Positions 15,817-25,052 of a stretch of 64,000 bases of DNA are shown here, in pieces (within the stretch, counting starts at the first letter, position 1; each line of letters begins with the position of its first letter). Location of the stretch: assembly GCA_017307165.1 (NCBI GenBank), contig JAFKGK010000001.1:372001-436000 (forward strand), read 5' to 3'. The notes below the pieces were generated by a model. That model searched no databases and was not told the DNA's origin. It worked only from the letters and a program-made list of their open reading frames with translations. The translations under genes and the position numbers were made by a program. The stretch is from Candidatus Melainabacteria bacterium. GTDB taxonomy: Bacteria > Cyanobacteriota > Vampirovibrionia > Obscuribacterales > Obscuribacteraceae.

Positions 15817-17115
15817 TTAGTAGCTGCGAGCCAAGCTCAAGCCAAAGCTTGATACCAGCATGACGGTGGCACATACGGTGCCGGCTGTCAAAAGAGCCAG
15901 CAAAGCGCATGTGGCCACTAGAGCTGTTTTGCCTGGTAGACGAGAGAGTCCGCGCAACATCCAGGCAAAAACAAAGATTTCGCAAGGAAATAGATAACGC
16001 CCCTGTCCGCCCCCGAGATTTTGCATCTGCGCATAGACCATGGCTGCAAAATTGAGGATTATGGCTGCACCCATATACAACCAAAACAGTTGATTTTCCT
16101 CTTTCTCCTGGCCTTTCAGACATAAGGCCCCGGTGCTCAAGATGATCATGCCAAGAAAAGATTGATAGAGAAAGTTTGGTAGAGGCATGTCCAGGTAGCC
16201 GAAGCAGCCATAAAACGAATTGAACCACAATTGCCACCATGTTCTTTCTTTGAGTACATGGGCAAGGCTTTGCGTGGCCGTGGGGTCTTTGTGATATATC
16301 TCGGCCCAGTGAGCAACCATGGTGCGAGTCCCGAGAAAATCTCCGTCAAAGACATCTCCGTTGCGCAAAAAGCACCAGACACTGATACTACCAGCAATGG
16401 CAGTTATTAGTATCGCATGAGTGATCGTCTTAAATCGCCTTGGCTGGTCGGTATCATGTCGGGCTGCCTGATCCCTCGCCTCTTGCCAATACAAGATGGC
16501 AAAGACCATTGCAACGGCCGGCAAGATGCAATATCCAGAAAATTTTGACAGCAGCAAATAGCCTACAGCCAGTCCCAGGCAGAGACTACGCGAAGCGCTG
16601 ATGCCTGCTTTCAGGATCTTGTAGATCAAGACAGCGATGATGGCTGAGATGCAAGCTGTGCTGGCGTCATTATTGGCATAAGCAGTGACGTAGTTGAACT
16701 GTGGGTGCAAAGCCACGGCTAGCGGTAATGCCCAGCGGATCAAAGGGTGGTAAGGAGGAGGAAAGAGTTTTTGACCCAGGTAATGAGCGCAAGCAATTGT
16801 GATTAGCCCGCATACGACAGAGCCAAGCCTGATCCAGCGAGTGAAATCCATGAGTTGGGCGCCATGGTCCACCAGCCGAGATAGCCAACCCCAGGCCACA
16901 TGTGGGAGATAGCCCATTGCCGGCATTGAGCCGTACACGGCCGATGCTCCGCCATCGTGCACTTCAGCTGCATATGGCAATCGCGCATGCGAGACCATAA
17001 AATCAATCATCCAGTAATGCGCAAACTCATCTGGTGCCTTGACCATTGGAATGGCCATGACCCAGATCAGATGGAGGATGGCAGATGCCGATAGTAAAAG
17101 GATCAGTGGCCTCAA
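15817..17115 (-). CDS. DUF2142-type multipass membrane protein
   Basis: 432 residues with about nine to ten hydrophobic segments. The N-terminal segment is followed by KAPDEFAHYWMIDFM, matching the (P)PDE-x-AH motif of DUF2142 proteins, which resemble GT-C glycosyltransferases; in that fold acidic residues in the first periplasmic loop are catalytic. A later FLGTRTMVAHWAEIY and a C-terminal GGQGRYLFPCEIFVFAWML (R-Y-L-F-P) fit that fold. The substrate is unknown; envelope polysaccharide or protein glycosylation is the usual proposal. The ATG overlaps the stop of the upstream uridine-kinase-like gene by four bases, so the two are translationally coupled. Confidence 0.78.
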   Translation of the reverse strand: MRPLILLLSASAILHLIWVMAIPMVKAPDEFAHYWMIDFMVSHARLPYAAEVHDGGASAVYGSMPAMGYLPHVAWGWLSRLVDHGAQLMDFTRWIRLGSVVCGLITIACAHYLGQKLFPPPYHPLIRWALPLAVALHPQFNYVTAYANNDASTACISAIIAVLIYKILKAGISASRSLCLGLAVGYLLLSKFSGYCILPAVAMVFAILYWQEARDQAARHDTDQPRRFKTITHAILITAIAGSISVWCFLRNGDVFDGDFLGTRTMVAHWAEIYHKDPTATQSLAHVLKERTWWQLWFNSFYGCFGYLDMPLPNFLYQSFLGMIILSTGALCLKGQEKEENQLFWLYMGAAIILNFAAMVYAQMQNLGGGQGRYLFPCEIFVFAWMLRGLSRLPGKTALVATCALLALLTAGTVCATVMLVSSFGLSLARSY

Positions 17116-17678
17116 GCAAGCATGCCGCCGTGCATTTCTTCGCCCATCAAAATCAAATCCGCCAGACTCTTCATTGGCTCGACATATCTCGAATAAGCGT
17201 CTTCGACTTGCAGCGAGCGGGCAATAGTCTCTCGTGATGATCTCCCTCTCTGGACATCGCGGCGCAATCTGCGGGCCATTCTCTGATCGATTGGAGTATC
17301 GATAAAGATCTTGAGGGAGGCGATCTCGTCCATCGGGCTATGAAAGGCAAAGATGCCCTCGACCACGATAATACCGCTCTTGGGCGGAGGTACTGTCTGC
17401 TTGCCCTCGCGCTTGCAGGAAAGCATGCTGTAGACCGGAATATCGACAGCTTCTCCAGAGGCCAGAGTGAGGCAGGCCTGAGCTAGTTCGTCTAAGGCGA
17501 CGGTGGAAGGATGGTCAAAATCGTAAGTACCGTCTTGGCGAGGGGTGAGGTCCTCGAGATCTTTATAAAAACTGTCAGTGGCGAGGATCGCGGCTTGCAA
17601 AAATTTGCGGGCCAGAGTCGATTTGCCTGAGCCGGAACCGCCGCATATGGCTATGATCTGGGATTGTCTGTTTTTCAT
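17112..17678 (-). CDS. Uridine-kinase-like P-loop phosphotransferase
   Basis: 188 residues, slightly shorter than Udk (about 210). It has Walker A GGSGSGKSTLA, then ATDSFYKDLEDL and DFDHPSTV, which match the uridine kinase/phosphoribulokinase family (D-F-D-H-P). The family's IVVEGIFAF strand and a lid-like RMARRLRRDVQRGRS follow. It likely phosphorylates uridine or a similar small molecule. The product could be another member such as a nucleoside-like kinase, since Udk-specific C-terminal residues are not all present. It overlaps the DUF2142 gene by four bases. The kinase at 17777 is divergent, with a 98-base spacer. Confidence 0.82.
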   Translation of the reverse strand: MKNRQSQIIAICGGSGSGKSTLARKFLQAAILATDSFYKDLEDLTPRQDGTYDFDHPSTVALDELAQACLTLASGEAVDIPVYSMLSCKREGKQTVPPPKSGIIVVEGIFAFHSPMDEIASLKIFIDTPIDQRMARRLRRDVQRGRSSRETIARSLQVEDAYSRYVEPMKSLADLILMGEEMHGGMLA

Positions 17679-17765
17679 CAGTTAAGGTTTTGGGGTGGGG
17701 CGTGAGCTATGATCAAAAAATACAAGCTTACAGTAAATAACTAGAAACTATCTTTTTGCTCTAGC

Positions 17766-17770
17766 AGGAG
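17766..17770 (+). promoter_or_regulatory. Ribosome binding site for an ATT-initiated kinase
   Basis: AGGAG lies six bases before ATT 17777, the spacing expected for a bacterial start. The frame has a TAG at 17762-17764, and no ATG, GTG or TTG occurs in frame between there and ATG 17909. Confidence 0.6.
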
Positions 17771-17776
17771 TTACTT

Positions 17777-20700
17777 ATTGCTATCAGTCATAAACCTGAT
17801 CCCAATCTCGAGCATCTCAAGATACTCGTTGATAGTGTCGCGGCCATAATCTGGGAAGAAAATTTTGACTCTAGTAAACTGCACTTTGTCTCGGATTATG
17901 TCGAGACGATGCTTGGTTATCCAGTTGCTGATTGGTACCAGGACGAGAGTCTCTGGATGCGTATCTGCTATCCGGATGATATTGAGCGGGTCAGAGCAGT
18001 AAAGGCTGCCGCAACTCCCCAGAACGATCGATACGAGATCGTGTATAGGCTCAGGACCGCTCAAGGGGAGTGGCTCTGGATCATGGATCGAGTGCAGGTC
18101 GAGTTTGTCGATGGCGTGCCTGTGCGCTGTCGTGGCATCAGTTATGACGTGAGCGAGAGACGTCGTATCGAAGATGCTCTCAGCCTGGTCGTGGATGTCG
18201 CCGTAGAAGCCGGTGAGCTGAGCTCGCTCGATGATATCTTTGTGCACTGTCTAAACCGCATTGGCAGCTCGGGCTGCTGGATATTGGGCCAGGTCTGGGT
18301 CCCGAGCTCAATGCCTGGCCACAATGGCCTCAATGGGATGGATGGTCCTCTGGTCTGTAATCCCAATGCCGTATTTTATGGTCGATCTCTCGATCTAGAG
18401 TCGATCAGGCAGGAGAGTCTGGAGACTACTTTTGGTTTGGGGCAGGGGCTGCCTGGACATGCTGCTTTTGTCGGCTCATCGATTTTTTTGGATGCCATAG
18501 ACGAAGAACCCCGCCTATCCCTCAAAGACTCGGGCATTATTTCGAGCGGATTTGCTTTTCCTGTGCGTCGTGGTAATGAGGTCATGGCTGTCTTTGAGTT
18601 TTTTGGCGATGTACGCCAGAGACCGGACAAGTATTTTTTAAATGCAATCGAAGAAATCGGTGCTCATCTTGCTGTTTTGATAGATAAGCGCCAGACGCAG
18701 GAGCTGTTGGTCAGGCAAATTGCTCAAGAACAGGTTGTGATCGATTCGACTCCGGCCTTTGTCTTTTTTAAAGACCGCCGTAATCGAGTCATTCGTGTCA
18801 ATCAAGCAGTAATCGATGCTCTGGGCATCAGTAACGAAAAACTCGTGGGCATGGACCTGGCCGATATTTTTCCGATGCAGGCCGAAGAATACTATCGTGA
18901 TGATCTCGAGGTGATGTCTACAGGGCAGCCCAAGCTAGGCATTATCGAACAAGTAACCTGGACCGGGCGGCAAGAGGATCTGCAGTGGGTCTCCACTGAT
19001 AAGGTGCCTTATCGCGATCATAATGGCCAAATAATAGGCATTATTGCATTTGCGGTAGACATCACCAAGCTCAAGGCAACCGAAGACCAGCTTTTGGCCA
19101 GCCAGCAGGATCTAGAGCTCAAGGTCGAGGAGAGGACCAAGGAGCTCGAAGAAGCCAATATTTTTTTCAATCTATCACGCGATCTTTTATGTATAGCCGA
19201 TTCTACAGGGCATTTTAAACGCATCAACAAAGCCTGGTCGGAAAAATTGGGATATGCGCAAGAAGAGCTGCTGAGTCGGCCGTTTTTTGAGCTCGTGCAC
19301 CCCGAAGACCTCAATGCGTCGATGGGTGCTCAGCAATATGTCCTCGATGGCAACGCGCTCTTTGAGTTTCAAAACAGGTATATCTGCAAGGATGGATCGA
19401 TAATCTGGTTGCAGTGGTCGGCCGTCCGCAATCCAGACTCGGGCATGATATTTGGTGTCGCATATGATATCACCGATCGCAAAAAGGCCGAGGATGAGCT
19501 GCTGGACATCTCTCATGCCCTCAAAAATGCAGTGGAGGGCATTGCCAAAGTAGATGTCGATGGCCGTTATCTCTCGGTGAACCAGAGCTATGCCAATCTT
19601 TTGGGCTTTGAGCAGGAGCAGATGGTGGGCATGAGTATTCGTGATGCCATATATGGTGCGGATCTGGCCAAGTTCGATCAGTGTTTTAGCGATATGCTCG
19701 AAGCCAATAAGGGAGAAACGGAGCTATTAGGCCGGCGTTCGGATGGTCGTATCTTTCACGAGGCCATCACCCTGGTGAGGGTCAATGATAAAAGAGGCAA
19801 GTATACGGGGTTTTATATCTTTAACAAGGACATCTCCGTGCGCAAGGAGATAGAGGTTTCGCTCCAGCAGTCAGAAGCCCGATTTAATCAGCTTTCGGCT
19901 CATGTACCTGGTGGCATCTATCAATATGTGCATGCTGCCGATGGACGTGATTATTTTCCCTATATGAGCCAGAGCTGCAAGTCTATCCTCGAAGTAGATC
20001 CTGTAGACATCATGCGCGATCCTATGCTTGCCTACGAAAATGTCTATCAAGAAGACCTGCCAGGATTATTAGAAGCCAATCGTCAGGCCAATATCAATCT
20101 TGCGACCTTTTCTCACGAGTGGCGTATCCATCTGCCTTCTGGTGGCATGAAATGGGTACGCGCCACCAGTTCTCCTGAGAGACTGGACAATGGCGATATA
20201 TTGTTTAACGGACTTTTGACCGATATCACGCAAGAGAGATTGTCCGAAGAAAAAATCAAACAGCTCAATGTCGACCTCAGTGAGCGTGTACAAAATCTGG
20301 CTTCGGTCAATAGCGAACTCGAAACACTTACACGCAAGCTCGAGGTGGCTTACGACGCGGCTTTAGAGGCGTCCAAGCTCAAGAGCGAGTTTGTCGCAAA
20401 CATCTCGCATGAGATCCGTACTCCTATCTCTGCCGTGATCGGCATGTCCGAGCTATTGCTCGATAGTCCTCTTTCGGACGAACAAAAGCAACTGACCAAT
20501 ATGGTCAAAGACTCGGCAAAGTCGCTCTTGACCATCATCAACGACATCCTCGACTTTTCAAAAATAGAAGCCGGGCACATAGAGCTCGATATCATCGAGT
20601 TTAACCTATTAGAATTGATGGAGGATTGCGCTCTTTTATTGGCGCCAGCAGCGCGCAAAAAAGGCCTCAATCTCTACACCTGGATAGACCCGCGCCTGCC

Positions 20701-22582
20701 GCTATTTTTGCGCGGCGATCCAGTGCGTATCAGGCAAATACTGCTCAATCTCGCTGGCAATGCAGTCAAGTTTACACGTAAAGGCGAGGTCTTGATCAGG
20801 GCTGACTATATCAACCAGGACAATGCCGGCGACAAGTGCAATCTCAGGATCACCGTAGAAGACACCGGCGTCGGAATGTCTGATGCGGCTCGCAGCCGCT
20901 TGTTTAAGCCTTTTGTGCAGGCCGATGGATCGACGACGCGCAAGTTTGGCGGTACCGGTCTCGGTTTGTCTATCAGTCGCTTGCTCGTTGATATCATGGG
21001 TGGTGAAATCGATTTTGCCAGCCAACTCTCCGTGGGTTCGTCTTTTTGGTTTAAACTGGCATTGGATCGAGCCAGCGATCACATCACCGTAGGGCAAAAG
21101 GTCTTTGCCAGCAAGTCGATCGCTCGGGCCGGGGGGGGCGATGGCGATCCTCGTCCACTGCTGATCGTAGCCGGCAGCAATCGACTTTGTAGTCTCTTGA
21201 GTGGTTACCTCGGTTATCTCGGCATTCCATGCGTCATAAAAAATTCTCCAGCCGAGTTTCGCCGTGCCATGACAGCACCGGATGAAGGCCCATCTAAATA
21301 CCGTGCCTGCATCTATGATTTTTCGGCAGCTATAAAGCGCCACAATATTTCTGTCACGACATCATCTAGCCCTGCCAAAAATACCATCTCAGGCAGTTTC
21401 CTCATCAGACCCAACCCCATCGAGATAGAGGGGTTGATCAAAATGAGCGACTATCTTGAGGAGGCTGGAGCCAAAATCCCACTCCTTGTGCTTGGACTTG
21501 GAGATCTATCCAGCGATGCGCGACTCAACAGGTTTCAGGATGTACCGCGGCTATTAAAGCCATTTAGGTTGAGCGATCTCGTCGTAGGCATCAAAAAGAT
21601 ACTCAAGTCTAGCGTCACAAACTCCGGCCAGGACTCAAGAGATCGAGCTTGTAATCTCGATGACTATGACGACTCCGGCTCGCATGAACAATTGAAGCAA
21701 AAGGTCCAATTTGTTGTCAAGGGTAGGGGCGTTCCTGTCCAGGGCTCGCAACAGTCTGCTTTGCGTGTTCTTGTAGCCGAGGACAACCCAGTGATGCGCG
21801 AATTAGCCCTGAGGCAGCTGGAAAAGCTTGGCCTGGAGGCTGATGGTGTGGCCAATGGCAATCTGGCCGCCAGGGCAGCTGCTAGTGGTCGCTATGCCGT
21901 TATTTTGATGGACTGCCAGATGCCAGAGATGGATGGCTATGAGGCTACGATCAAGATACGCAAAGAAGAAGCTATGCATGGTGGACATATCCCCATCATT
22001 GCCATGACAGCTTCGGCAATGAGCGGGGACCGCGAAAAATGCATCGCGACAGGCATGGACGATTATCTGAGCAAACCAGTCAGTCGCGAGCAATTGATGC
22101 ATGTTTTGGCACAGTGGCTGCCGTCAGACCTTTACAGTCTCAAAAGCAATATTATTAGCCGAGAACAAAAGGATCAGGCACCAGGGCCAGATTTGCAGCA
22201 GGCCAATGCGCCTGATAATGTAAAACTTGCAGATCCTGATCCGCAGATTTTAGAAAATCCCCCGATCGATCTGGATTCTTTGGTCAATCTCTACGGCGAG
22301 GATGGGCTGGAATCTTTGCTTGACAGCTTTAGGCGCGAATGCGAAGAGCTCATGGCAGGGATCAAGAGCAGCCTAGATGCAAATCAATATCTCGAATTGG
22401 TCAGACTGGCCCACCAACTCAAAGGGCTAGCCGTGGTCATGACAGCTCAAACTTTGGGCGACAAAGCCCTGGCTCTGGAGTCTCAGGGCCGAAAAGGACA
22501 GGGCGCCGACCAACCTTTGTCAGAGCTTTGCCAAAGCGTCGAAGCCGAGTTGGCAGCGACGCTCGCCTATCTCGATCGATGA
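17777..22582 (+). CDS. Giant hybrid histidine kinase (PAS-GAF-PASx4-HisKA-HATPase-REC-REC-Hpt)
   Basis: 1601 residues if translation begins at ATT 17777, with AGGAG six bases upstream. Starting at the first ATG (17909) would cut off the first strands of PAS 1, whose sequence (AAIIWEENFDSS, then HFVSDYVETMLGYP) is clearly coding. Domains: PAS (about 8-135), GAF (140-290), four further PAS (about 305-820), coiled coil, HisKA with His878 in ANISHEIRTP, HATPase with N, G1 (VEDTGVGM) and G2 (GGTGLGLSI) boxes, a degenerate receiver lacking the Asp (about 1125-1260), a canonical receiver with Asp1379 in LMDCQMPEMDGY, and Hpt with His1546 in LAHQLKG. There are no transmembrane segments, so it senses cytoplasmic cues. 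It is a self-contained phosphorelay; the final regulator is unknown. Confidence 0.9.
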   Translation: MAISHKPDPNLEHLKILVDSVAAIIWEENFDSSKLHFVSDYVETMLGYPVADWYQDESLWMRICYPDDIERVRAVKAAATPQNDRYEIVYRLRTAQGEWLWIMDRVQVEFVDGVPVRCRGISYDVSERRRIEDALSLVVDVAVEAGELSSLDDIFVHCLNRIGSSGCWILGQVWVPSSMPGHNGLNGMDGPLVCNPNAVFYGRSLDLESIRQESLETTFGLGQGLPGHAAFVGSSIFLDAIDEEPRLSLKDSGIISSGFAFPVRRGNEVMAVFEFFGDVRQRPDKYFLNAIEEIGAHLAVLIDKRQTQELLVRQIAQEQVVIDSTPAFVFFKDRRNRVIRVNQAVIDALGISNEKLVGMDLADIFPMQAEEYYRDDLEVMSTGQPKLGIIEQVTWTGRQEDLQWVSTDKVPYRDHNGQIIGIIAFAVDITKLKATEDQLLASQQDLELKVEERTKELEEANIFFNLSRDLLCIADSTGHFKRINKAWSEKLGYAQEELLSRPFFELVHPEDLNASMGAQQYVLDGNALFEFQNRYICKDGSIIWLQWSAVRNPDSGMIFGVAYDITDRKKAEDELLDISHALKNAVEGIAKVDVDGRYLSVNQSYANLLGFEQEQMVGMSIRDAIYGADLAKFDQCFSDMLEANKGETELLGRRSDGRIFHEAITLVRVNDKRGKYTGFYIFNKDISVRKEIEVSLQQSEARFNQLSAHVPGGIYQYVHAADGRDYFPYMSQSCKSILEVDPVDIMRDPMLAYENVYQEDLPGLLEANRQANINLATFSHEWRIHLPSGGMKWVRATSSPERLDNGDILFNGLLTDITQERLSEEKIKQLNVDLSERVQNLASVNSELETLTRKLEVAYDAALEASKLKSEFVANISHEIRTPISAVIGMSELLLDSPLSDEQKQLTNMVKDSAKSLLTIINDILDFSKIEAGHIELDIIEFNLLELMEDCALLLAPAARKKGLNLYTWIDPRLPLFLRGDPVRIRQILLNLAGNAVKFTRKGEVLIRADYINQDNAGDKCNLRITVEDTGVGMSDAARSRLFKPFVQADGSTTRKFGGTGLGLSISRLLVDIMGGEIDFASQLSVGSSFWFKLALDRASDHITVGQKVFASKSIARAGGGDGDPRPLLIVAGSNRLCSLLSGYLGYLGIPCVIKNSPAEFRRAMTAPDEGPSKYRACIYDFSAAIKRHNISVTTSSSPAKNTISGSFLIRPNPIEIEGLIKMSDYLEEAGAKIPLLVLGLGDLSSDARLNRFQDVPRLLKPFRLSDLVVGIKKILKSSVTNSGQDSRDRACNLDDYDDSGSHEQLKQKVQFVVKGRGVPVQGSQQSALRVLVAEDNPVMRELALRQLEKLGLEADGVANGNLAARAAASGRYAVILMDCQMPEMDGYEATIKIRKEEAMHGGHIPIIAMTASAMSGDREKCIATGMDDYLSKPVSREQLMHVLAQWLPSDLYSLKSNIISREQKDQAPGPDLQQANAPDNVKLADPDPQILENPPIDLDSLVNLYGEDGLESLLDSFRRECEELMAGIKSSLDANQYLELVRLAHQLKGLAVVMTAQTLGDKALALESQGRKGQGADQPLSELCQSVEAELAATLAYLDR

Positions 22583-22604: not shown

Positions 22605-25052
22605 TTGTCGGAATATATATTGATCAGAGTCTTTATCATCATCTTTGCTGTGGCGGTACTCATTGCTTCGGGTGGTTTTTTTGCCATGCAAAACAGCCTG
22701 CCGGAGTTAGATGGAGTCAAGTCCATCCCGCAAATGGCATCTGCCGGTTCGGTCAAGTTTGATGCACGGCAAGTGCCGTATATCGAGAGCGCATCCGATA
22801 TCGACGCTTATCGGATACAGGGCTATATGACGGCTCAAGACCGTCTCTTTCAGATGGACATGCAGAGGCGAGCAGCTCAGGGGCTCTTGTCAGAGGTATT
22901 TGGTGCTAGCACGGTGCCTCACGACAAATTGGTGCGTACCATAGGCATCAATAGAGCCGCCAAGCAGGAGCTCAAACAAGTCTCGCACGAGACCCTAGCT
23001 GCTTTAGAGGCCTACAGCCAGGGAGTCAATGCTTTTCTTGACGCTGCTGGCAGCAAAATGCCGATGGAGTTTTTGCTCTTTTCTTATAAGCCGCAACCAT
23101 GGACTCCTCTCGATTCGATTGCGATCGCCAAATACAAGCAATACGAGCTAGACGAATCCTGGCGTTTGGACGATTTGAGGCAGAGGATCCTTGACAAAGC
23201 CGGAGCTCCCTTTGCTAGTTATCTCTTTCAGAGGACTTTTAGCGCACCACCAGCGGTGAGCATCAGGACAGATGCGGACAGACCCAGTCTAGCCAGTCTG
23301 CCTGAGCGTGAGAGCGATGGCATGTCTATCGGCTCTAATGCTTTTGCCGTAGGCAAAAAGATCGCTGCATCGCAAAATTCGCAAGCAGGCCACACGGCTC
23401 TTTTGGCTCTCGACAGACATGCAAAGCTGACGGCGCCTTGTGATTATTATTTGATTTCGATGCGCACTCCTACCATGCATGTTGCTGGGGCGAGTTGGCC
23501 AGGCATGCCGGGTGTCTTTGCCGGACGCAACGATGAGATAGGCTTTGCTGCGACCTCTTTAAAGGCTGATATGCAAGATCTCTTTCTCGAGCAATTTTCA
23601 CCACAATTTCCCAATAAATACCGCACTCCTCAGGGATGGTCCACTGCAGAGGAAATAGTCGAAGAAATACCGGTGAGGTTTTCCAAAAACTTATTTTTTA
23701 CCTCCAATCTTTTGCATAAAATCACGATCACCAGACATGGCCCTGTGCTAGCCAGGCAGGACGACAATGCAACGGCTCTGGCTTGGGCCGGACTCAATCT
23801 GCCTATACCGGAAAAATCTCATGGCTTGATCGAAGCAACTCTGATGATAAACAAGGCCGTCGATTGGCCCGGCTTTATAAAGATCCTCGATCAATACAAA
23901 GGGACGGCTTTTACTTTTACCTTTGCCAATAGGCAGGGCGATATCGGTATGGCAGAGGCTGGCGCAGTGCCTATTAGATTTAATCCGGACAAGTTTGGCA
24001 AGTTTGAAAATCTGCTTCTCAATCCTGGTTGGGCTAGTGCTGGCGATTGGGTCGGTCTGGCCAGCAATGCCGATTTTAGTCGTGTATACAATCCTGGCTC
24101 ATCGTATGTGGTGGCTAACTCCTCCCCTGGTCGATTGCCACTCAATCTCAATACGATGCGTGGCGAGCGCATACAACAAGTCTTGATGGCACTCGCTCAA
24201 AAGAGCGGCACACGCAAGATCGATCTGAGCGATCTTGCTCTCCTGCAAGGTGACATGCAGGCTCCTTTGGCGGATCTTGTCAAAAGCACCATCGCCGAAA
24301 CCGTAGGCAAGAGTGAATTGATAGATCAATATCAGATCAATGCTTTTGAAGTCTTGAGCAAGTGGGATGGAGTACTCTCGGCCGATAGCGAGGCTGCCGC
24401 CATTTATGAGTCGTTTTTACGAACAGTCATGAGGCGGATCATCGTGACTAGATTGGATGTGCAGTTGGCCAATGAATATTTTGATCGCTATCCTGCAGTA
24501 TCCGATGTCGCAAGGCGGTTTTTGACCGAGCGCAGAGTGGATTGGCTGCCTGCAGAAGAAAGGACATTTAAAAACTTTGTCATAAGCTCGTTTGTGCAGT
24601 CTCTCAAGGACCTGCGCATGGCGCAGGGGAACGAAGCCAATGGACAAAATAGCAAAAAGATAGTCTGGGGCGATCTGCACCAGATGACGGTAAAGTCTAT
24701 ATTGCCAACCGAAGCTCCAATCTTGAGCGAGATAATGGCGCCATTTCGCAATATACCGGTTTTGCCTGTAGGTGGGGACGGCGACACAGTGGTGACCAAT
24801 CAGGCCCTAGCCAGACGAGGATCATCCAGTTTTGCCTGTCAGCATGGCCCGACCATGCGTCTGGTCGTTGATATGTCTGATCAAGACAAGTTTTATCAAA
24901 ATCTGTATCTGGGCCAGTCTGGTCAAGCAAACTCTGGCGCTGCACGTGACCAGCTCAATGCCTGGATGTCGCTCAAGCCTTTGCCGATGGCTTTTTCGAC
25001 AGACACAGAAAGCAAGTTGTCTCAGCATAGATTGCTCTTTGGTGCTAGATGA
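22605..25052 (+). CDS. Penicillin-acylase family N-terminal-nucleophile hydrolase
   Basis: 815 residues from TTG 22605; TTG 22620 would shorten it by five. An N-terminal hydrophobic segment (about 8-30) acts as signal or anchor. The alpha-subunit part has PYIESASDIDAYRIQGYMTAQDRLFQMDM, split here as PYIESASDIDAYRIQGY and TAQDRLFQMDM, typical of the family. The autocatalytic site is GSNAF with Ser244 as the new N-terminal nucleophile after spacer removal; the later GRNDEIGFAAT and VVTNQALARRGSSS-type regions fit the beta subunit. Family enzymes cleave amide bonds (penicillins, acyl-homoserine lactones, other acylated amines). The substrate cannot be read here. Its stop overlaps the ATG of the DUF3160 gene. 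Confidence 0.88.
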   Translation: MSEYILIRVFIIIFAVAVLIASGGFFAMQNSLPELDGVKSIPQMASAGSVKFDARQVPYIESASDIDAYRIQGYMTAQDRLFQMDMQRRAAQGLLSEVFGASTVPHDKLVRTIGINRAAKQELKQVSHETLAALEAYSQGVNAFLDAAGSKMPMEFLLFSYKPQPWTPLDSIAIAKYKQYELDESWRLDDLRQRILDKAGAPFASYLFQRTFSAPPAVSIRTDADRPSLASLPERESDGMSIGSNAFAVGKKIAASQNSQAGHTALLALDRHAKLTAPCDYYLISMRTPTMHVAGASWPGMPGVFAGRNDEIGFAATSLKADMQDLFLEQFSPQFPNKYRTPQGWSTAEEIVEEIPVRFSKNLFFTSNLLHKITITRHGPVLARQDDNATALAWAGLNLPIPEKSHGLIEATLMINKAVDWPGFIKILDQYKGTAFTFTFANRQGDIGMAEAGAVPIRFNPDKFGKFENLLLNPGWASAGDWVGLASNADFSRVYNPGSSYVVANSSPGRLPLNLNTMRGERIQQVLMALAQKSGTRKIDLSDLALLQGDMQAPLADLVKSTIAETVGKSELIDQYQINAFEVLSKWDGVLSADSEAAAIYESFLRTVMRRIIVTRLDVQLANEYFDRYPAVSDVARRFLTERRVDWLPAEERTFKNFVISSFVQSLKDLRMAQGNEANGQNSKKIVWGDLHQMTVKSILPTEAPILSEIMAPFRNIPVLPVGGDGDTVVTNQALARRGSSSFACQHGPTMRLVVDMSDQDKFYQNLYLGQSGQANSGAARDQLNAWMSLKPLPMAFSTDTESKLSQHRLLFGAR

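What the first reader, a model, noticed from the sequence alone, without database searches (positions are those of the whole stretch)
17762..17911. Hybrid kinase probably initiated at an ATT codon
AGGAG lies six bases before ATT 17777, and a TAG at 17762 closes the frame upstream. The sequence between ATT and the first ATG (17909) encodes the opening strands of a PAS domain. ATT starts are rare and best known for infC, where they permit feedback control.
Basis: partly seen in the sequence, partly recalled or inferred. Interest (0 to 1): 0.6.

Follow-up and report, generated by a model that had tools for sequence, protein, structure and literature searches.

The report
Sensor kinase probably starting at ATT
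A large bacterial sensor-kinase gene has no usual start codon and very probably begins translation at the rare codon ATT, since all ten related genes found begin upstream of its first ATG; it is a new example of a known but rare kind of start that gene-finding software misses.

Summary
AGGAG (17766-17770) lies exactly 6 nt before ATT 17777; TAA 17738 and TAG 17762 close the frame; the first in-frame ATG/GTG/TTG is ATG 17909.

The 44 codons between ATT and ATG are coding: codon score +7.9, against 6.7±4.5 for coding and -9.8±4.6 for off-frame windows. They match an orthologue profile (E 2e-9). Ten syntenic family orthologues all start upstream of the ATG-17909 position. The two from the nearest genus have GTG exactly where this gene has ATT, 6 nt after GAGGG. 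AGGAG at 5-7 nt precedes only 0.2% of interior in-frame ATT codons in this genome; its 16S 3' end carries CCTCC. Among 1652 genes scanned this is the clearest intact gene lacking a usual start.

Best explanation: inefficient AUU initiation rescued by a strong SD, keeping the kinase scarce and probably IF3-sensitive (inferred). No feedback loop is shown; this genome's own infC has TTG. A base-call error and an overlapping out-of-frame TTG (17778) remain minor rivals.

By-product: a TIGR03960 radical-SAM gene upstream of an RNase E/G-like gene has GGAG-N7/8-AT(A/C/T), never ATG, in 27 of 33 family genomes.

The parts
17738..17740 (+). in-frame TAA, further upstream stop
   Evidence: translation from 17702
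17762..17764 (+). in-frame TAG, nearest upstream stop
17766..17770 (+). Shine-Dalgarno AGGAG
   Evidence: anti-SD CCTCCTTTC at the 16S 3' end of the same genome
17777..17779 (+). proposed start codon ATT, 6 nt after the SD
   Evidence: aligned with the GTG start of orthologues G025 and G004; chance 0.2% per ATT codon
17778..17849 (+). overlapping out-of-frame TTG ORF (23 codons then TAA) that could compete for the same SD
   Evidence: read from sequence; no coding signal in this frame
17777..17908 (+). 44 codons before the first ATG: N-terminal tail and opening part of PAS domain 1
   Evidence: codon score +7.9; orthologue profile hit E 2.3e-9 with Z=1000
17909..17911 (+). first in-frame ATG (Met45), inside PAS 1, no SD
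   Evidence: PAS_3 match begins at residue 37
17777..22582 (+). hybrid histidine kinase, 1601 aa: PAS, GAF, several PAS, HisKA, HATPase_c, receiver, Hpt
   Evidence: Pfam and NCBIfam scans
17112..17678 (-). divergent uridine-kinase-like gene, conserved neighbour of the orthologues (name from my own reading)
   Evidence: 67-73% identical homologue beside the kinase in 5 orthologous loci
22605..25052 (+). penicillin-acylase-like gene downstream, conserved neighbour (name from my own reading)

Best explanation
The gene is an intact hybrid sensor kinase whose translation starts at AUU 17777. A well-placed Shine-Dalgarno (AGGAG, 6 nt) holds the AUU in the ribosomal P site, where initiator fMet-tRNA pairs with it imperfectly, so the protein starts with fMet and is made at a low rate. 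The ancestral start at this position was probably GTG or ATG. Likely effect: the kinase is kept scarce and its synthesis depends on initiation stringency (IF3 activity). Shown here: reading frame, conserved coding sequence upstream of the ATG, position homologous to conventional starts of relatives, SD and anti-SD. Inferred: that AUU itself is used, the low rate, and the IF3 dependence.
For: AGGAG-6-ATT and stops confirmed. Upstream 44 codons coding; the first 18 codons from ATT score +2.4, reached by 0.7% of off-frame windows. Orthologue profile hits the 44 aa, E 2.3e-9; the TTG-frame peptide does not. Ten orthologues start upstream; GTG in G025 and G004 lies at the identical distance from the motif, 6 nt after GAGGG. 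Synteny conserved. Clearest intact gene without a usual start among 1652. Another gene of the family has conserved AUH starts. AUU starts are experimentally known: infC, repressed by IF3 (PMC5472188); pcnB and cvfC1 (PMC13009471); RcsD-Hpt (PMC10191623).
Against: No protein or ribosome data. One genome only: no congeneric genome was held, so a base-call error or strain variant cannot be excluded. ATT is not conserved in orthologues. A competing TTG sits 1 nt away in another frame. The sequence is from an incomplete 35-contig assembly.
Confidence: 0.75

Rival explanations
1. The ATT is a consensus error or a minority strain variant; the real population has ATG (or GTG) at 17777 and the start is ordinary.
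For: Single incomplete assembly, no second genome of the genus held. One substitution (ATG to ATT) would suffice. Orthologues have GTG, ATG or TTG.
Against: Per-base consensus error is normally rarer than natural AUU starts (own judgement); other genes of the same genome also lack a usual start (larE, TIGR03960, truB), and one of these is conserved as non-ATG across the family.
Confidence: 0.12
2. Initiation is at a neighbouring site: the out-of-frame TTG 17778 followed by a -1 frameshift, or another near-cognate codon (ATC 17783).
For: TTG 17778 is 7 nt after AGGAG and is a better start codon than ATT.
Against: The TTG frame has a negative coding score and no orthologue similarity; I saw no typical slippery heptamer by eye before its TAA 17847. 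ATC 17783 is 12 nt from the SD.
Confidence: 0.07
3. The start codon has been lost by mutation and the gene is a beginning pseudogene that is no longer made in useful amounts.
For: No usual start remains; nearest relatives have GTG.
Against: 1601 codons remain open with all catalytic domains recognisable, and the SD is well placed.
Confidence: 0.04
4. The true start is ATG 17909, the first conventional start and what an automatic gene caller would be expected to choose.
For: It is the first conventional start.
Against: It cuts the first PAS domain, has no SD, is not a Met in orthologues, and the upstream 44 codons look coding and conserved.
Confidence: 0.02

Closest known systems
E. coli infC (IF3), AUU start
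   Same: AUU start, probably IF3-sensitive
   Different: There the product is IF3 itself and closes a feedback loop; here the product is a sensor kinase, and this genome's own infC starts with TTG
RcsD-Hpt of Yersinia pestis, AUU start (PMC10191623)
   Same: AUU start with an upstream RBS in a phosphorelay (two-component) protein
   Different: An internal start making a short Hpt fragment, proven by mutation; here the start of a full-length 1601-aa hybrid kinase, predicted only
E. coli pcnB AUU; S. aureus cvfC1 AUU and ccpN AUA (PMC13009471)
   Same: Low-efficiency start backed by a good SD, limiting protein yield
   Different: The S. aureus cases are conserved and measured; here the ATT is seen in one genome and orthologues use GTG, ATG or TTG
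Streptomyces sigR, GTC start (PMC5472188)
   Same: A regulatory protein kept scarce by a non-canonical start
   Different: GTC, shown experimentally to be repressed by IF3

Membership tests
Bacterial genes with an AUU start codon | No ATG/GTG/TTG between the upstream stop and the conserved N-terminus | tested here: met
Bacterial genes with an AUU start codon | SD at functional spacing before the AUU, matching the genome's own anti-SD | tested here: met
   AGGAG, 6 nt; 16S 3' end CCTCC
Bacterial genes with an AUU start codon | Start position agrees with orthologues | tested here: met
   GTG of G025/G004 at the same position, 18 residues before the motif
Bacterial genes with an AUU start codon | Initiation at AUU shown by N-terminal peptide, toeprint, ribosome profiling or mutation | not testable with these tools
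   no experimental data
Bacterial genes with an AUU start codon | Non-canonical codon conserved in relatives (supporting, not required) | tested here: not met
   orthologues use GTG (3), ATG (5) or TTG (2) by my reading; no congeneric genome available
infC-type IF3 feedback genes | Product is IF3 | tested here: not met
   product is a histidine kinase; infC is elsewhere and starts with TTG
Hybrid histidine kinase with receiver and Hpt | HisKA, HATPase_c, Response_reg and Hpt domains above curated cut-offs, in order | tested here: met

The most novel reading that the evidence does not exclude
This bacterial family uses AUU/AUC/AUA starts as a regulatory class: the kinase (AUU) plus a TIGR03960 radical-SAM gene directly upstream of an RNase E/G-like gene, whose AUH start is conserved in 27 of 33 family genomes and never ATG, so that several genes respond together to initiation stringency (IF3 level or activity).
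Probability: 0.25. Interest if true: 0.65.

Novelty: new member of a known kind. Interest (0 to 1): 0.42.

Why it matters
AUU starts are known for only a handful of bacterial genes, and a reconstruction of start-codon evolution found just one AUG-to-AUU and one GUG-to-AUU switch among about 66,000 ancestral AUG and GUG starts (PMC5622118). A further case, in a sensor kinase of a poorly known lineage, would be a natural test of whether weak starts are used to keep regulators scarce. It also shows a cheap way to find starts that gene callers miss; that search turned up a far better conserved case (TIGR03960).

Tried and rejected
Start at ATG 17909: rejected by orthologues and coding signal. Frameshift from TTG 17778: no coding signal in that frame. 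infC precedent in this lineage: infC starts with TTG in this genome and, by reading, at a TTG in most relatives shown. Promoter scan of 17640-17960: nothing above chance. RNA fold of 17730-17830: z -1.1, no clear structure over the start. Single-sequence AlphaFold of the first 142 residues: mean pLDDT 46, not used. Genome-contig scan: no close orthologue. Literature: no paper naming TIGR03960 with radical SAM in the held library.

Full report
OBSERVATION. The DNA reads tctagcAGGAGttacttATTgctatc from 17760. AGGAG is 17766-17770 and ATT is 17777-17779, six bases between them. In the same frame TAG stands at 17762 and TAA at 17738, and the first ATG, GTG or TTG is ATG 17909. From ATT the frame runs 1601 codons to the stop ending at 22582 and encodes PAS, GAF, further PAS, HisKA, HATPase_c, response-regulator and Hpt domains.

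IS THE STRETCH BEFORE THE ATG TRANSLATED? Codon usage trained on the same genome gives +7.9 for the 44 codons from ATT to ATG; 44-codon coding windows give 6.7 +/- 4.5, off-frame windows -9.8 +/- 4.6, and none of the latter reached the observed value. The first 18 codons from ATT alone give +2.4 (coding mean 2.5; only 0.7% of off-frame windows as high). A profile built only from orthologues hits these 44 residues with E 2.3e-9 (Z=1000), while the peptide of the overlapping TTG frame gives nothing. The Pfam PAS_3 match begins at residue 37, eight residues before the ATG-encoded Met45, and the conserved NSVEAIIWE-type stretch lies wholly before it. ATG 17909 is therefore very unlikely to be the start of the normal protein.

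ORTHOLOGUES. Searching the family of the genome gave ten orthologues at 45-54% identity over the N-terminal region. All ten loci carry a homologue of the neighbouring gene at 15817-17115, and five also keep the divergent uridine-kinase-like gene, so they are positional orthologues. Their start codons, by my reading, are GTG (G025, G004, G009), ATG (G011, G029, G060, G062, G063) or TTG (G027, G035), 12-40 residues before the motif; none begins at the position of ATG 17909. In the two genomes of the nearest genus (G025, G004) the GTG lies 18 residues before the motif, as does the ATT here, and is preceded by GAGGG at the same six-base spacing.

IS ATT THE START? The 16S rRNA of this genome ends GGATCACCTCCTTTC, so AGGAG can pair. 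Six is the commonest AGGAG-to-ATG spacing in its genes. AGGAG at 5-7 bases precedes only 0.21% of interior in-frame ATT codons, and about 0.26% of all codons. With about three near-cognate codons (ATT, ATC, ATA) available before the motif, a chance match is under 1%. In 2.22 Mb of the genome (1652 genes of at least 150 aa) I looked for coding-like sequence upstream of the first usual start. This gene ranked second, behind a Rhs-like fragment at a contig end, and first among intact genes (for the first 871 genes). The scan also picked up prfB at its programmed frameshift (TAT CTT TGA C), an unplanned positive control.

MECHANISM. I think translation starts at AUU with fMet, at a low rate made possible by the SD, and that this keeps the kinase scarce. 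IF3 is known to repress non-canonical starts and infC is the classic AUU case (PMC5472188). pcnB and cvfC1 are AUU starts that limit yield (PMC13009471), and an AUU start of a phosphorelay protein, RcsD-Hpt, was proven by mutation (PMC10191623). IF3 sensitivity here is an inference from those cases. No feedback loop is suggested: this genome's infC starts with TTG. The TTG at 17778, one base inside the ATT, may compete for the same SD and lower the yield further; this is speculation.

RIVALS. A base-call error or strain variant remains the most serious one, because the genus has a single held genome. Frameshift from TTG 17778, a decaying gene and ATG 17909 are less likely for the reasons given above.

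BY-PRODUCT. Two other genes of this genome have clear coding sequence but no usual start before the conserved N-terminus: larE (G000:C1:12789) and a TIGR03960/TIGR03936 radical-SAM fusion directly upstream of an RNase E/G-like gene (larE and RNase E/G named by my own reading). truB is a weaker case. For the radical-SAM gene the pattern is family-wide: GGAG, seven bases (eight in three genomes), then ATC (12 genomes), ATA (12) or ATT (3), never ATG, in 27 of 33 family genomes from 12 genera. In several, a stop codon lies one to six codons upstream, and in G000 and G032 no usual start exists at all between the upstream stop and the domain. Members of other families of the class, where parsed, have an ATG. 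This conserved case deserves its own study. It also makes AUU initiation of the kinase more believable.

VERDICT. Observation confirmed, interpretation supported as a prediction (0.75). It is a new member of a known rare kind. Interest is moderate; the conserved TIGR03960 start raises the interest of the lineage.

Noticed in passing
G000:C1:524751 (L104:14751; L201) and loci L202-L215, L251-L267: TIGR03960/TIGR03936 radical-SAM gene, directly upstream of an RNase E/G-like gene, has GGAG-N7/8-AT(A/C/T) and never ATG as apparent start in 27 of 33 family genomes (12 genera); other families of the class, where parsed, have ATG.
   Followed up: partly
G000:C1:12789-13619 (L228): larE-like gene has no ATG/GTG/TTG before its conserved N-terminus; candidates are ATC or GTT after AAAGG, while relatives shown have ATG or GTG.
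   Followed up: partly
G000:C1 about 168370-168480, minus strand (L216): truB has no usual start before GFLNINKP; five relatives have GTG at what looks like the same place; CTG is a possible start.
   Followed up: partly
window 21131-21138: Run of eight G inside the kinase, in the linker between the ATPase and receiver domains; the frame is intact, but such a run could slip or be an assembly risk.
   Followed up: no
window 17771-18247, minus strand: A 158-codon antisense open frame covers the kinase N-terminus; its positive codon score is probably a shadow of the kinase frame.
   Followed up: no
G000:C19:14500-15567: prfB with the usual programmed frameshift site TAT CTT TGA C.
   Followed up: no
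infC loci L051-L080 and L121: infC appears to start with TTG rather than ATT/ATC/ATA in this genome and most of the family members read.
   Followed up: partly
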